In this document: piece after piece, positions 19,431 through 29,431 of the stretch
Numbering within the stretch: position 1 is the first letter of the stretch
Layout: each line of letters starts with the position of its first letter
DNA from: Methylobacter sp.
Lineage (GTDB): Bacteria > Pseudomonadota > Gammaproteobacteria > Methylococcales > Methylomonadaceae
Length of the DNA: 32,328 bases
Direction of reading: 5' to 3'
Assembly (NCBI GenBank): GCA_030653175.1
Contig: JAURZV010000068.1
Coordinates: 1 to 32,328 of the forward strand
The notes under the pieces: model-generated
The model's input: only the letters and a program-made list of their open reading frames with translations
Databases searched by the model: none
What the model was told of the DNA's origin: nothing
Made by a program: the position numbers and the translations under genes

Positions 19431-19986
19431 AATATACTGCAAACGGTCATGAATTGCGCTTTTTAGAATCCCCTCATCCCAGCCTTCTCCCTGAGGGAGA
19501 AGGCGCTGACGCTCTAAAGTCAACAGTATTGACCCCAGCCCTCTCCCGCAGGAAGAGGGGACAAAAACCGCAATCCGTACCCGTGTCGAGTATAGTTGGC
19601 CGCCGGGTTCACACTGCGCCCGGTTTGCCCCTCTGCATAATACACACGCTTGCGATCGATAACGCCATGGATGGCGTGTAGTAGGCGCTTCACCCGACTT
19701 ATTTCCACTTGCTCTTTTAGAAGTGGATTTGTTCACATTATCCTAAAAAAATCAGTTGGAGCGCGTGGAAACCGTTCGTGCTGAGCCCTTCGGCTACGTT
19801 CAGGAAAGCCTTGTCGAAGCCTGTCATGAGCTTGTCGAATGGGGCGAACGGGGTTTGGAATGCTCAACTGCGGTTTTTAGGAGCATTTCCCGCCGGCAAT
19901 ACGAATTAATTCGCCATTTACCACAAGCCTTTTCATTCTCCAGCTTTCGTCACTTGTCGCCGTTCGTGTCTTTTAGTTTTCATCAA
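19431..19986. other. 556-base repeat-rich gap between rpiA and gspD
   Basis: No gene supported. From left to right it holds the 65-base repeat listed separately (19468-19532), then CCCCAGCCCTCTCCCGCAGG followed by AAGAGGGG, a second hairpin (19532-19560). A GCCATGGATGGC motif lies near 19667, and a stretch at 19785-19850 repeats TGAGCCCTTCG, CTTGTCGAAGCCTGTCATGAG and CTTGTCGAATGGGG in both orientations. The last family recurs at about 27184-27208 in the gspG-gspH spacer. The hairpins probably end the convergent rpiA and T2SS transcripts. Confidence 0.65.
19468..19532. repeat. 65-bp dispersed repeat, copy 1
   Basis: Contains a perfect 10+1+10 palindrome, CCTTCTCCCT-G-AGGGAGAAGG (19483-19503). 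The full 65 bases recur in inverted orientation at 27286-27350 with a single difference. Copy 1 is intergenic; copy 2 lies in the open frame upstream of gspH. Confidence 0.85.
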
Positions 19987-22753: not shown

Positions 22754-23337
22754 TCCGGCAGCCTTCTCATAAAGCTGACCGCCTGAAAATTAATATTTAA
22801 TTCGTTACTCGGTTCGATCTGGCGCGTTGTCCTGCTTCTTACGCCGCGCATCGGCCTTATCTCTATCTGATTGATAATAATCAGCGGAGTCGACGTTTCT
22901 ATTTTGTACAGCACCGCCCGCAACACTTCGCTATTACCCGTCATCCTTACGCTGACGGTTATCCGGCTAAATTCATTTTTGGTACTAAGAGGAAGCGCCT
23001 GGGTACTGCTCAATTGCCCGCCTGCCTCTGTAATTACTTTTTTAATGAACTCCTGAACCTCGGCGGACGCTAAAGCGCCGGTACTCTGCCTGTTCAAAAG
23101 TCCACGCTTTTGATACTGCTCTTTTATGGCGCTCATGCTTTCAATGACTGCGTCTTTTCTTGCCAGAACCCGCTCGTATTGCTGAAGCCTGAAAACAAGA
23201 TTATTTTTGGCCTCGTGCAGCTCCAAACCTTTGTTAACCACAGGTACTATAACAGCCAGACTGACAATCAGTATCGCCGCAACCAACAAGGCGACGGCCA
23301 ACCATCGCTGCATTTGCTGACTACCTACCTTGACCAT
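22750..23337 (-). CDS. gspM: T2SS platform protein GspM
   Basis: A 195-aa inner-membrane protein starting MVKVGSQQMQRWLAVALLVA. A membrane helix (13-35) is followed by a coiled-coil (LELHEAKNNLVFRLQQYERV) and a ferredoxin-like periplasmic domain, the GspM subtype b plan. It binds GspL and stabilises the assembly platform. The frame is open to 23466, but ATG 23337 has GGGAGG upstream and gives the proper cytosolic N-terminus. It overlaps gspL by 17 bases and the next gene by 4. Confidence 0.88.
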   Translation of the reverse strand: MVKVGSQQMQRWLAVALLVAAILIVSLAVIVPVVNKGLELHEAKNNLVFRLQQYERVLARKDAVIESMSAIKEQYQKRGLLNRQSTGALASAEVQEFIKKVITEAGGQLSSTQALPLSTKNEFSRITVSVRMTGNSEVLRAVLYKIETSTPLIIINQIEIRPMRGVRSRTTRQIEPSNELNINFQAVSFMRRLPE

Positions 23338-24517
23338 TGGCGCCTCCCTGTTTCGACGGCATGGATGGCGGCGCAACTGCCGGGGTAACGTCAACGGTAA
23401 TCTGGAACCGCTCCTGCCCGCTGGCTTTGTCTTGGGTGACCGGCGAAACGAATCGGGCGTCGGCAAACAATTCGGAGTCTTCCAAAACGCCGATCAATGC
23501 TGAAGCGGCGGGCGACTCGCCCTGTATTTGCAGATGCCCGTCCGAGTATTGCGCATAGGACAACCAGGTATTATCTTTGATTAGCGCGCTTAAGGTATTC
23601 AACATCTCAATTACTGTTGGAGCCGCATTTTTCTCCGCTATCAATAGCCGTGTTTCGTCTATCATCGCATCAATCTCCAGCTGCAAGGCCTTAACTTCCC
23701 TGGCGTCCTTTTCTATGGCATCGATTTTTTCCTGCAAGGCATTGACCGTTTGATATTCAAACAAGACCGGCAGCGCCAGCACAGCGCCCAGCAGTAAAAA
23801 TATCGCCGCAATCAACCCCGTATAAATCAAACGCTGTGCATTTGCGGGTTTTTCCCTTAGGCTTTCCGGTAATAAATTGTAACCCTCATAACGTTGCTCA
23901 AGATCATTCGGCGTCGCCTCATAATCGACGAATAGTGGCGACATATCCATTGCCTTGATGTCTTCATACAATGCATCAAGCGTTTCTCTTGGAGTTAACA
24001 CCAGCATGACCCTGATTTGTCCGGGCTCATGCTCACCTTCCAGCGGCTTAACCGCAAAATAAACCTGTTCCGCCTTAAACGGCGTATAGCGATCAAGTTC
24101 GTAGGCAACAACCTGGGACAGGTTTTCTTTTACGGCGACCGGCAAGGCAAGCTCTTTTTGAATGGCCTCTTGCGCTGTTAGCCGGAGTATTAGGTTTGCT
24201 TTAGCCAGCCGTTCATCTTTGGCTCGCAAGGCTTTATATTGCTCTATGCCCGAGGCGTTGCGCTCCAGTATTGCCAAAGGCTCGGCTTGCTCATTCGCCG
24301 CGCCGGTTCCTGACTGGCTTGCGGCATACACACCATCCCTGGCGATGAGCACGTAGGTCAACGCTAGCCGATTGTTTTCGGGGCGAACGATAATGAAGCC
24401 CTGCTTCTCATTAACCAGCCGCCTGATTTTTTCGGGCACCAAAAAGTCAAGTTCGCGCAGCCACCAGCGGAAGAATTTTTTAACATCCAGATCAATCGTT
24501 GAATTCAGGTTCGGCAT
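23321..24517 (-). CDS. gspL: T2SS platform protein GspL (with PilN-like C-terminus)
   Basis: A 398-aa inner-membrane protein. The cytoplasmic N-terminal half is the actin-like GspL/PilM domain (VVAYELDRYTPFKAEQVYFA, 136-155) that recruits the GspE ATPase. One membrane helix spans about 230-253. A coiled-coil (258-298) and a PilN/GspL periplasmic domain end the protein. Residues 59-71 (ARDGVYAASQSGT) are encoded by a dispersed repeat shared with gspJ; they lie in a loop between strands of the N-terminal domain. The gene overlaps gspK by 26 bases and gspM by 17, so translation of K, L and M is probably coupled. Confidence 0.9.
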   Translation of the reverse strand: MPNLNSTIDLDVKKFFRWWLRELDFLVPEKIRRLVNEKQGFIIVRPENNRLALTYVLIARDGVYAASQSGTGAANEQAEPLAILERNASGIEQYKALRAKDERLAKANLILRLTAQEAIQKELALPVAVKENLSQVVAYELDRYTPFKAEQVYFAVKPLEGEHEPGQIRVMLVLTPRETLDALYEDIKAMDMSPLFVDYEATPNDLEQRYEGYNLLPESLREKPANAQRLIYTGLIAAIFLLLGAVLALPVLFEYQTVNALQEKIDAIEKDAREVKALQLEIDAMIDETRLLIAEKNAAPTVIEMLNTLSALIKDNTWLSYAQYSDGHLQIQGESPAASALIGVLEDSELFADARFVSPVTQDKASGQERFQITVDVTPAVAPPSMPSKQGGANGQGR

Positions 24518-26003
24518 ACTGTCTCACTAGCAACTCATCTTTCTCATCTACAAACAATGAACCGTCAACTGCGGTATTGCGCTGCCATTTCAGGACCTGA
24601 AACGGCGACGTCCCCGCCGGACTATCCGGTTTTTTTATCAGCGCTTTGATGGTGGCCGTTGTGCCATCATCCAACTGCGCTTCGGCAACAACCGTAATCA
24701 CACCTTTTTGTTCTGTTCCGTCATTGATAGCTATTGCAGGTGCGTTCTCACCCGTTTGTCCGGACGCCACACCTGGATTAGCGACTACCGGAATTGTCGG
24801 GGCGGGCAAGCCGGTTATCGCACTTTCCCGCCTGGCCGCAATATATTGGTCTATCAATCCGGCATCCATTCCCGGTAATACATATAAAACCTCTTTGGCC
24901 GCCTGAGTCACATCAACCTTGGGCTGTCCCGAGTAGACCGTGACCAGATTTTCAATCCACTTGAAGGTCTGTTCATTCATGCCCAATACCAGCTGTAATT
25001 CCTCAATAGACTGAAACGGCTTGTTGCGCGGCCGGTAGCTTAAGCCTGCGTCTTTATATTCTTCTTTCTCCGCGCCCTCTATATGCACCAGATCATCCGC
25101 ATCGCGCCAATCGAGAATCGCATTAACCAATCTGGTTTGCAACTCGACATCAACAGGCGCGTGAAACATAAGCCCTTGTAACAGGGACTGGTCGGCACTA
25201 TTTAAATCCACTTTGCCTGTTTCAGATAGTAGCCGGACTCTGACCTTCGAATCCGCGTAATCTAGTTGGTAAATACTGCCATCGGTTCGCCAGCGCTGCC
25301 GCTGATCGGGATTCATTAACATCAGCTCTGCTATGGCAAGCCCTGATTCTGCAACAGCCATGGCCTGGGCATTATTACTGCTGCCGGTCACAATGCCCGC
25401 TTCCCGCCGCATACTAAGAGCAAAACTACCGGCCATAATGGCCAGCAGACTCAACACCCACAAAACCAGAACAAGGGCAAAGCCGCCAGACCTGATCAAT
25501 TGCCACCCTCTAACGATGCCGCGTTTACTCCAGTCTCTGCACCTGCAACTTTAAGCTCTATGATCATTTCCGGCCAAAAAACACCATTTGTAGTGTTGAT
25601 GTTGATTTTGACCAATTTAGGTTGAACGTCTTTTTCCAGCCATTCATCCTGCCAACTGTTTTTGCTAACATCATCATCGGCAGCGCCAAAATAAGCCAGC
25701 GTAAAACCGCTTACATGCCTTAACAAAACCGCCTCTTCCTGATGCCATTCTTCGCCCTCGCTTACCGGAAAAAACGGCGTCAGCGTCACTTTGATAACCT
25801 GCTCTTTATCTTGTTGCTGCTGCTGTATTGAAAACAGCTGCATGCCTGCTCTACCGACGCTTGCAGGAAAAACCGAGACAAACTGCAAGGACTTCTTTTT
25901 GCCTTGAAAAGAGAATGTTTTATCCTTGTTTTCCGTCGCCGCGGCATTCCCATCATCCCTGGCGGTTCCCGACCGGCTTGCGGCATACCCACCATCCCTG
26001 GCG
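24304..26003. repeat. 41-bp repeat shared by gspL and gspJ coding sequences
   Basis: The 41 bases at 24304-24344 (in gspL) and 25963-26003 (in gspJ) differ at only three positions and share CTTGCGGCATAC and CACCATCCCTGGCG blocks. Both are read in the same frame, giving ARDGVYAASQSGT in GspL and ARDGGYAASRSGT in GspJ. In gspJ a second partial copy follows in tandem (25941-25964). The span given covers both copies; the sequence between them is ordinary gsp coding sequence. Confidence 0.85.
24492..25499 (-). CDS. gspK: T2SS minor pseudopilin GspK
   Basis: A 335-aa pseudopilus tip protein. The short leader MIRSGG is followed by FALVLVLWVLSLLAIMAGSF, a prepilin helix lacking Glu5, as is normal for GspK. 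Helical saposin-like GspK domains follow: GKVDLNSADQSLLQGLMF (95-112), AILDWRDADD and YRPRNKPFQSIEELQLVLGM (155-174). The insert around 226-260 (Pro/Ala/Gly-rich) is longer than I expect and could be linker. It should cap the pseudopilus with GspI and GspJ. It overlaps gspJ by four bases (ATGA). Confidence 0.93.
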   Translation of the reverse strand: MIRSGGFALVLVLWVLSLLAIMAGSFALSMRREAGIVTGSSNNAQAMAVAESGLAIAELMLMNPDQRQRWRTDGSIYQLDYADSKVRVRLLSETGKVDLNSADQSLLQGLMFHAPVDVELQTRLVNAILDWRDADDLVHIEGAEKEEYKDAGLSYRPRNKPFQSIEELQLVLGMNEQTFKWIENLVTVYSGQPKVDVTQAAKEVLYVLPGMDAGLIDQYIAARRESAITGLPAPTIPVVANPGVASGQTGENAPAIAINDGTEQKGVITVVAEAQLDDGTTATIKALIKKPDSPAGTSPFQVLKWQRNTAVDGSLFVDEKDELLVRQYAEPEFND

Positions 26004-26293
26004 GTAAAATCATCCCATAAAGGTATGGCCGAGGATAAATGCCGCTGAAAAAAGTTATAGACTACGGCGACCTCGTTCACTTCGGCTATTTTGTTTTCTC
26101 CCTGCTCCCAGCTTTGGGCGCAAATTCTCAAGCTACTGAACAATAACACCACCATAATGCTTAATAGTGTCATTGCTATCAGAACCTCAATCAGCGTGAA
26201 GCCCATCGCATATCTTAAACCTGGGAAATGGTGCGCGATGCACACCCTGCCTTGAACCTTGACCCCTGATCCTTGCGCCTGAGCTTTCCTCAT
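25496..26293 (-). CDS. gspJ: T2SS minor pseudopilin GspJ, with repeat insertion
   Basis: A 265-aa pseudopilin. The prepilin site is AMG-FTLIEVLIAMTLL, with cleavage after Gly31 and Glu at +5. The 31-residue leader is long and partly made of simple repeats (KAQAQGSGVKVQG). ATG 26293 overlaps the gspI stop as ATGA, which supports it. After PLWDDF the repeat-derived segment TARDGGYAASRSGTARDDG (97-115) interrupts what should be a surface loop before FSFQGKKKSLQFVS, where GspJ homologues normally run on directly. It forms the pseudopilus tip with GspI and GspK. Confidence 0.92.
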   Translation of the reverse strand: MRKAQAQGSGVKVQGRVCIAHHFPGLRYAMGFTLIEVLIAMTLLSIMVVLLFSSLRICAQSWEQGENKIAEVNEVAVVYNFFQRHLSSAIPLWDDFTARDGGYAASRSGTARDDGNAAATENKDKTFSFQGKKKSLQFVSVFPASVGRAGMQLFSIQQQQQDKEQVIKVTLTPFFPVSEGEEWHQEEAVLLRHVSGFTLAYFGAADDDVSKNSWQDEWLEKDVQPKLVKININTTNGVFWPEMIIELKVAGAETGVNAASLEGGN

Positions 26294-26691: not shown

Positions 26692-27175
26692 TTTCAAGTT
26701 CAACTTGGCCGGTTAACCAGTTTATATCCATTTTCCACGATGTCTGCCCCCGTTCCAGCGTGATTCTTCCTCCCGTGGAGGAGCCATCGGCAAAAAAACG
26801 GATGTTCGCTGTGCCTTTTCCGGTTAATTCGCTTTGCGCAGTCACCACGGCGATATCAATACCCTCGGGTATTTGATAAAGCTTGTCCCGACCGCTGACC
26901 GTGTAGTTGTTATTACCAAGATCAATGGCAACCGTGGTTTCCTGATGGGTCATTAAAGCCTGCCCTCTGGCATAACGTAGCGCTGAAACTATATCTCTTG
27001 CCGCCGCCTTGATTTGGGTAGAGTCGCTCCCTGACGACAGGTTAAGACCGATCACCGAAAAACCCAGAACAACGACAAAAAGCACTACGGTCAACTCCAG
27101 CAAGGTAAAGCCGCGCTGCGGTTTGCCTCTCGCCAACAGTAGGCGCTTTAGGCGGCGCGGCGATTGAAGCTGCAT
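26684..27175 (-). CDS. gspH: T2SS minor pseudopilin GspH with repeat-derived leader
   Basis: A 163-aa pseudopilin from ATG 27175. The 22-residue leader MQLQSPRRLKRLLLARGKPQ-RG precedes FTLLELTVVLFVVVLGFSVI (Glu at +5), then the usual IKAAARDIVSALRYARGQAL and the small beta-domain ending in WLTGQVELENE. The open frame continues 166 codons upstream to 27673, but that extension is a mosaic of repeats and would bury the prepilin site 188 residues in. RLKRLL of the leader is encoded by a 17-mer that is intergenic at 15132-15148, so the start of this gene has been rebuilt from repeats. Function: joins the minor tip to GspG. Confidence 0.88.
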   Translation of the reverse strand: MQLQSPRRLKRLLLARGKPQRGFTLLELTVVLFVVVLGFSVIGLNLSSGSDSTQIKAAARDIVSALRYARGQALMTHQETTVAIDLGNNNYTVSGRDKLYQIPEGIDIAVVTAQSELTGKGTANIRFFADGSSTGGRITLERGQTSWKMDINWLTGQVELENE

Positions 27176-27663
27176 TCCCACGCCTGTCCTGAGCTTTGTC
27201 GAAGGGCATCGCGTAGGAACGAGACGAACCTTCTGTGCTAGTTCCCAAGCTCCAGCTTGGGAATTCGGTGCGGGAAGCTGGAGCTTCAATACTGTTGACT
27301 TTAGAGCGTCAGCTCCTTCTCCCTCAGGGAGAAGGCTGGGATGAGGGGATACAAATAAGCTTTTTTCCTTATTTTGATTTCCCCTCGGCAACTGCTCCAT
27401 GCGTTGCTCTACCTCCTGCATCCCTGCAAGTCGTCCCGCTGGAGAGGGCTTTGCATTGCTTAATTCAACAGTATTGAGCTCCAGCTTCCCGCCTCGCGGA
27501 GCTAGAACTCCGTCATCCGGGTTCACAAGCTCCAGCTTGTGAACCCGCGTATAGGTAAAGCCGTGCTGCGGTTTGCCTCTCAGCGCAGCGCGCTGAGACT
27601 GCATTCCCACGCAGCGCGTAGGAACGAGACGAACCTTTTGCCTTTCGTCCTTCGCCTTGCGCC
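27103..27663. repeat. Mosaic of repeats between gspG and gspH, with a duplicated gspH leader
   Basis: The 488 bases between the gspG stop and the chosen gspH start are almost all repeats. AGGTAAAGCC-CGCTGCGGTTTGCCTCT-like segments occur at about 27103-27130 (real gspH) and 27553-27580 (a remnant reading RGKPQHGFTYT). GCATTCCCACGC and GCGTAGGAACGAGACGAACC flank both copies. Also present: palindromes TTCCCAAGCT-CC-AGCTTGGGAA (27242-27263) and GTTCACAAGCT-CC-AGCTTGTGAAC (27521-27544), the 65-base repeat copy 2 (27286-27350), and inverted arms at 27272-27298 and 27465-27490. CCTTTTGCCTTTCG-type sequence at 27634-27659 recurs at 28083-28108 in the gspG leader. No stop codon interrupts the gspH frame. 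Confidence 0.8.
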
Positions 27664-29374: not shown

Positions 29375-29431
29375 TGTGGGGGCGACTTTAGTCGCCCAGT
29401 CAGCCAAGGGGCGACTAAAGTCTCCCCCACA
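29375..29431. repeat. Palindromic repeat in the gspE-gspF spacer
   Basis: Arms of about 23 bases at 29375-29397 and 29408-29431 with one mismatch: TGTGGGGGCGACTTTAGTCG mirrored by CGACTAAAGTC-TCCCCCACA. The GGGGCGAC...GTCGCCC frame resembles the palindromes at 15353 and in recC, but with a different centre. The transcript would fold into a strong hairpin between two cistrons and could set the gspE to gspF ratio. No T-tract follows, so it is not a plain terminator. Confidence 0.75.

What the first reader, a model, noticed from the sequence alone, without database searches (positions are those of the whole stretch)
24304..26003. Same repeat-encoded peptide inserted in GspL and GspJ
A 41-base repeat with three differences gives ARDGxYAASxSGT in the same frame in two unrelated T2SS proteins, in likely surface loops, and is partly doubled in gspJ. 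This suggests a repeat family that tolerates or selects insertion in one coding frame.
Basis: partly seen in the sequence, partly recalled or inferred. Interest (0 to 1): 0.75.

Follow-up and report, generated by a model that had tools for sequence, protein, structure and literature searches.

The report
Tiny mobile element inside protein genes
A 51-letter mobile DNA element has spread through a methane-eating bacterium by inserting itself inside working protein genes, adding 17 amino acids without breaking the reading frame; similar elements were known mainly from Rickettsia and its relatives.

Summary
The gspL and gspJ peptides are two copies of a dispersed 51-nt element (59 copies at 45 sites found in this 4.0-Mb Methylobacter genome). 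The unit is ATCGCC...GCGGCG, two adjacent hairpins with strong covariation. At 25 of 37 sites with a homologue in two near species, one of these has the exact empty site: a clean 51-nt insertion (102 for pairs) without target duplication, usually after T-W-T and before NNNG. Of 184 distinct sites in Methylobacter and close genera, 164 lie inside ORFs, among them dnaN and valS (two each), lptD, aceE and tsaC. Length changes inside intragenic copies are multiples of three in 11 of 12 cases, outside genes in 2 of 7, so the peptide is most likely translated. It is not 'one frame': five of six are used, with a strong bias. Closest known kind: Rickettsia palindromic elements; this family is shorter, built differently and lives in a free-living gammaproteobacterium. 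How it moves is unresolved: an enzyme acting in trans on a folded single strand fits best, but no Y1-transposase gene examined is flanked by it, and the replication-strand test was inconclusive.

The parts
24296..24346 (-). 51-nt double-hairpin element, full length, inside gspL; adds residues 58-74 (IARDGVYAASQSGTGAA)
   Evidence: exact empty site in G013 and G021
25937..26005 (-). fused and shortened double copy (39 + 30 nt) of the element inside gspJ; adds 23 residues (TARDGGYAASRSGTARDDGNAAA)
   Evidence: direct reading (the stretch is 102 nt in G013, 72 in G021 and 90 here, flank included)
23321..24517 (-). host gene, gspL by position between gspK and gspM (PilN / weak PilM_2 domains)
25496..26293 (-). 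host gene, gspJ-like minor pseudopilin
   Evidence: NF006453 and TIGR01711 below their cut-offs; T2SSJ weak

Best explanation
A non-autonomous mobile element of exactly 51 nt, made of two adjacent hairpins (positions 3-16 and 22-50), inserts without target duplication, mostly after T-(T/A)-T and before NNNG, in either orientation. Because 51 is a multiple of three and the consensus itself has no stop in any frame, insertions into genes add 17 mostly small or polar residues that are translated and tolerated; those that break proteins or bring stops are lost. Copies then decay in frame, and 57 of 184 sites hold two or more in tandem. Shown: family, boundaries, empty sites, target motif, hairpin covariation, host genes, frame-preserving decay. 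Inferred: translation, near-neutrality, and movement as a folded single strand acted on in trans by an unidentified host- or IS-encoded enzyme (an IS200/IS605-like route is the best guess, about 0.4).
For: Copies: 59 at 45 sites in the own genome. Of the 45 sites 37 have a homologue in the fetched G013/G021 stretches; 25 of these show an exact empty site, with T at -1 in 21, A/T at -2 in 20 and G at +4 in 21 of the 25. Intragenic 164 of 184 sites against 82% of bases in ORFs of that size. Lengths that differ between orthologous sites: multiples of three in 11 of 12 intragenic cases, 2 of 7 outside genes; without whole-unit changes 8 of 9 and 1 of 6. dnaN: 22 of 23 genomes gave a protein; 10 of 22 carry inserts at one or both of two fixed sites (one diverged), 12 are empty. 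Host genes by Pfam (37 ORFs scanned): dnaN, valS, rnr-like, two lpd-like, aceE-like, Sua5/tsaC, lptD, glnE, recO, folP, squalene-hopene cyclase and others. Covariation in 192 unique copies: the six highest corrected-MI column pairs are all predicted pairs; 244 two-sided changes in the upper stem of hairpin 2 against at most 26 when slid. G-T outnumber A-C mismatches 108 to 51 (more in 9 of 15 pairs, fewer in 4), pointing to the + strand as the folded one.
Against: No moving enzyme found: none of the 55 distinct Y1-transposase places examined, of 141 matches, has this subfamily within the fetched flanks, and G001 has 24 copies but a single Y1 match, in a short ORF. Replication-strand bias: 113 of 184 against 97.6 expected with the gene-corrected proxy, but 100 of 184 against 98.5 with plain skew, 33 of 57 against 30.6 in larger windows, and no clear excess in SV96 by my reading. 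The +4 G has no counterpart in the IS200/IS605 scheme. Covariation in hairpins can also arise by template switching without selection (recalled). Translation is inferred from DNA only. Sites shared by species or paralogues (for example the two C15 sites) are not independent.
Confidence: 0.8

Rival explanations
1. REP/RAYT system: the units are unusual REPs moved by a REP-associated Y1 transposase, as non-autonomous partners.
For: Hairpin units in dispersed and tandem arrays; Y1_Tnp matches in 23 of 23 genomes; one sister-subfamily (C) copy lies beside a short RAYT-like ORF in G001; a GTAG REP hairpin takes the place of hairpin 2 in some copies.
Against: No GT[AG]G head; mostly intragenic; 0 of 55 distinct Y1 places examined carry the subfamily, whereas RAYT genes are reported to be always flanked by their REPs (PMC2817692, abstract passage). 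G001 has many copies and one Y1 match in a short ORF.
Confidence: 0.15
2. Translational bypass or RNA removal: the insert is skipped or spliced, so the protein is unchanged.
For: Genes usually held essential carry it (essentiality recalled); the hairpins covary; bypassed hairpin inserts exist in yeast mitochondria (recalled).
Against: Lengths keep the reading frame inside genes (11 of 12) but not outside (2 of 7); frames with more stops are rarer.
Confidence: 0.05
3. RNA-mediated insertion: a folded transcript is copied into DNA by a reverse transcriptase at T-W-T/NNNG.
For: Pair 4-15 is G-T (G-U) in 171 of 192 copies; orientation unbiased to the host gene, 85 to 79; no target duplication.
Against: No reverse transcriptase was sought; no evidence of a transcript.
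Confidence: 0.15
4. Conserved peptide motif or chance similarity between two T2SS proteins.
For: Same frame in both window copies.
Against: Dispersed copies in unrelated genes, both strands, several frames; empty sites in relatives.
Confidence: 0.01

Closest known systems
Rickettsia palindromic elements (RPE) and Wolbachia palindromic elements
   Same: Short repeats with base-paired structure, inserted in frame into unrelated, conserved protein genes; also found outside genes.
   Different: RPEs are given as 105-146 bp with terminal inverted repeats and long stem-loops (PMC2229807, passages) or about 150 bp (PMC10969869, passages), and are described from Rickettsia; this unit is 51 nt with two hairpins, has exact empty sites and a target motif, and lives in a methanotroph genus. 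Sequences were not compared.
REP / REPIN / BIME with RAYT (TnpA-REP)
   Same: Hairpin units in many copies, in tandem or mosaic arrays; covarying arms.
   Different: REPs carry a GT[AG]G head and lie largely between genes (PMC6006769, passages); here no head, 164 of 184 sites inside ORFs, no flanking RAYT among those examined.
IS200/IS605 mini-elements (PATE-like; name recalled)
   Same: Two hairpins at the ends, sequence preference at the left flank, no target duplication.
   Different: The published scheme has a guide tetranucleotide 5' of each hairpin and insertion into the lagging-strand template (PMC6006769, passages); here there is almost no room for guides, a right-flank G preference, and the strand test was inconclusive.
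Intragenic ERIC/RU and other enterobacterial small mobile sequences
   Same: In-frame fusions with genes are reported (PMC10969869, passages; PMC2759123 seen in a listing only).
   Different: Mostly intergenic elements of 100-200 bp with, for several, target duplications (table passage).
Double-hairpin elements of mitochondrial genomes
   Same: Two adjacent hairpins in a very short mobile unit (recalled; a paper on sponge elements seen only in a search listing).
   Different: Mitochondrial; not compared here.

Membership tests
Rickettsia palindromic element | in-frame insertion into unrelated protein genes | tested here: met
   164 of 184 sites inside ORFs of 120 aa or more; Pfam host genes
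Rickettsia palindromic element | size about 105-146 bp, long stem-loop with terminal inverted repeats | tested here: not met
   unit 51 nt, two hairpins
Rickettsia palindromic element | sequence homology to RPE families | not tested
   no RPE sequence was compared
REP (RAYT-mobilised) | GT[AG]G head 5' of the hairpin | tested here: not met
   pair counts of 192 copies and column counts; flank counts
REP (RAYT-mobilised) | extragenic location | tested here: not met
   164 of 184 sites intragenic
REP (RAYT-mobilised) | copies flank a RAYT gene | tested here: not met
   65 fetched stretches, 55 distinct places of 141 Y1 matches: none with subfamily A, one with subfamily C
DDE-type MITE | target site duplication | tested here: not met
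   exact empty sites at 25 of 37 sites with a homologue, no duplicated bases
IS200/IS605-type non-autonomous element | hairpins at both ends | tested here: met
IS200/IS605-type non-autonomous element | preferred left-flank target sequence, no duplication | tested here: met
   T at -1 in 21 of 25 and A/T at -2 in 20 of 25 empty sites
IS200/IS605-type non-autonomous element | insertion biased to the lagging-strand template | tested here: inconclusive
   and the gene-corrected proxy positive; plain skew, and+83 not
IS200/IS605-type non-autonomous element | mobilised by TnpA (Y1) | not testable with these tools
   needs biochemistry

The most novel reading that the evidence does not exclude
A class of 'coding-compatible' transposons outside the Rickettsiales: the unit length (17 codons), stop-free frames and target motif together let a hairpin element, moved as a folded single strand by an unidentified enzyme, use the coding four fifths of a genome as its home, steadily adding short peptide loops to core proteins of a free-living bacterium.
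Probability: 0.45. Interest if true: 0.8.

Novelty: new variant of a known kind. Interest (0 to 1): 0.62.

Why it matters
In-frame palindromic elements have been known chiefly from Rickettsia and Wolbachia, that is from intracellular bacteria. A recently active, structurally defined family in a free-living methanotroph genus suggests that in-frame insertion of mobile DNA is a wider route to new protein loops. With exact empty sites in close species, a defined target motif and host proteins such as the sliding clamp, both tolerance of the insert and the moving enzyme become testable.

Tried and rejected
Chance or conserved-motif origin: rejected. Known RNA family: no Rfam match at gathering threshold in five loci, 15,270 bases. 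Phage or plasmid origin: no match to the 51-mer in either collection. Autonomous parent: of 323 copies with the 5' half, 13 lack the 3' half; four of these (and L218) carry a GTAG REP there; only about 75 bases downstream were read, so a distant parent is not excluded. RAYT flanking: negative for 55 of 141 Y1 places. Replication-strand bias: one proxy positive, others not. Arrays as pure slippage: adjacent copies are closer than random ones (52 outside pairs, median 5 against 8 differences; 7 own pairs, median 4 against 8) but rarely identical (6 of 52; 0 of 7), so not settled. Structure models of DnaN and GspL: mean pLDDT 43.0 and 42.5, too poor to use, though the inserts fall between predicted strands; no fold search was run. 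The first copy scan used a regex mode that skipped weaker copies; a Hamming scan replaced it and the counts given rest on that, except that the site list for the query came from the first scan.

Full report
What was checked. The two window repeats match at 38 of 41 bases and share a frame; the core has no chance expectation in the window. The genes sit in a type II secretion operon with gspE, F, G, H-, I-, J- and K-like genes, gspL by position, gspM and gspD.

A dispersed family. The own genome (4.0 Mb, 109 contigs) gives 54 BLAST matches and 50 pattern matches with 0 for the reversed control. A scan of the fetched loci gives 60 hits, one of a sister subfamily, hence 59 copies at 45 sites. An exact-pattern scan of named genomes reached its limit at 107 stretches; the 80 titles shown are Methylobacter, Methylovulum, Methyloglobulus or Methylococcaceae without genus. 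In the genus 22 of 23 genomes have it. In a sample of the order 30 of 201 genomes have it, 11 of 48 genera, all in the same family.

Anatomy. The unit is ATCGCCAGGGATGGTGTGTATGCCGCAAGCCNGYCGGGARCNGGCGCGGCG. Hairpin 1 pairs 3-7 with 12-16; hairpin 2 pairs 22-26 with 46-50 and, past a two-base bulge, 29-34 with 40-45. In 192 unique copies 98%, 95% and 94% of cells pair; two-sided changes are 10, 33 and 244 cells, while slid versions give at most 26; the six strongest corrected-MI pairs are all predicted pairs. Leaving out pair 4-15, G-T mismatches exceed A-C 108 to 51 (more in 9 of 15 pairs, fewer in 4); pair 4-15 is G-T in 171 of 192. This points to the + strand as the folded one. Cells count sequences, not events, and such covariation may also come from template switching between arms (recalled), so it is not proof of selection for movement.

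Insertion. 37 of 45 own sites have a homologue in the stretches fetched from the near species G013 and G021; 25 show an exact empty site. Of the 8 others, 6 were not in the query, one gave no match and one differs by more than the script allowed. The insert is exactly 51 nt, or 102 for pairs, with no duplicated bases. Empty sites have T at -1 in 21 of 25, A or T at -2 in 20 of 25 and G at +4 in 21 of 25, against base frequencies of 0.23-0.26. Over 152 full-ended sites the information is 1.73 bits at -1, 0.76 at -2 and 1.02 at +4; G is the commonest base at +4 in every frame class listed and outside genes.

Inside genes. Of 184 distinct sites (47 own by this merging, 137 other) 164 lie inside ORFs of at least 120 aa; 82% of bases in 40 sample windows lie in such ORFs, so genes are not avoided. 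Host genes by Pfam, 37 ORFs scanned, include dnaN (two insertions), valS (two), an RNase R-like gene, two lipoamide-dehydrogenase-like genes, aceE, Sua5/tsaC, lptD, two heptosyltransferases, glnE, recO, APS kinase, folP and squalene-hopene cyclase; that several are essential is recalled. In dnaN, 22 of 23 genomes gave a protein; 10 of 22 carry 17 to 38 extra residues at one or both of two fixed sites (one diverged), 12 are empty.

Translated or skipped. Comparing orthologous sites, lengths other than empty or own are multiples of three in 11 of 12 intragenic cases (the exception is 9 nt from a stop codon) and 2 of 7 outside genes; leaving out changes by whole units, 8 of 9 and 1 of 6. Frames over 164 sites are +0 74, -1 38, -0 36, +1 11, -2 5, +2 0. 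For 137 internal sites the 11-column target model predicts, in the same order, 42.5, 15.4, 35.7, 21.1, 14.5 and 7.8 against 66, 27, 28, 11, 5 and 0 observed (chi-square p 5e-8; two simpler models are rejected more strongly; orthologous sites not removed). Stops inside copies number 10, 4, 9, 24, 38 and 34 of 230, and the edge codon in frame -2 would be a stop at 94 of 152 sites. This fits translation with loss of harmful frames; protein evidence is lacking.

How it moves. No duplication, two hairpins, a preferred left flank and a folded + strand resemble IS200/IS605 single-strand insertion (PMC6006769, passages). Against this: 65 fetched stretches, 55 distinct places of the 141 Y1 matches, hold no copy of the subfamily and one of sister subfamily C; G001 has 24 copies but one Y1 match, in a 123-aa ORF covering profile positions 8-110 of 121; the strand test gave 113 of 184 (expected 97.6) with a gene-corrected proxy, 111 of 178 (expected 95.0) without host ORFs, 100 of 184 (expected 98.5) with plain skew, 33 of 57 (expected 30.6) in larger windows and no clear excess in SV96 as read by eye. 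The enzyme is unknown.

Relation to known elements. RPEs are the nearest kind (PMC10969869 and PMC2229807, passages; the original papers were not seen). Size and build differ. Two sister subfamilies (CCATGGATGGAGGAAATGCCG and GCCATGGATGGCGGAAGTGTCG) exist in the genus; 17 of 28 copies examined lie in ORFs. No paper holding any of five element words (two DNA, three peptide) was found; searches on coding palindromes, Methylobacter repeats and double hairpins listed nothing that I recognised as this family, within an open-access library and from titles and abstracts only.

Noticed in passing
window 19458-19532 and 27286-27360: Another dispersed repeat: 75-nt inverted pair, 95% complementary; not identified.
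   Followed up: no
window 27103-27640: Several further repeats, some palindromic, in the long 5' part of the gspH ORF; its GspH match starts only at residue 186-187, so the start may be set too early or the region is built of repeats.
   Followed up: no
window 29375-29431: Inverted arms of 23 nt, 96% complementary, at the start of the gspF ORF.
   Followed up: no
L013, L027, L145, L163, L218; L365 dnaN: A GTAG-type REP hairpin takes the place of hairpin 2 of the element; the L218 stretch is a multiple of three, and dnaN of G007 (L365) has a peptide that looks like such a chimera.
   Followed up: partly
L316, L320, L321, L322, L396: Sister subfamily B is repeatedly found after the same 'cttctg' flank, which looks like one place inside subfamily C in opposite orientation, as if C were a preferred target.
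   Followed up: partly
L198: gspL of G021 (SV96) lacks the loop insert but has a LAYTPSLAI stretch near its C-terminus, probably another copy read on the other strand.
   Followed up: no
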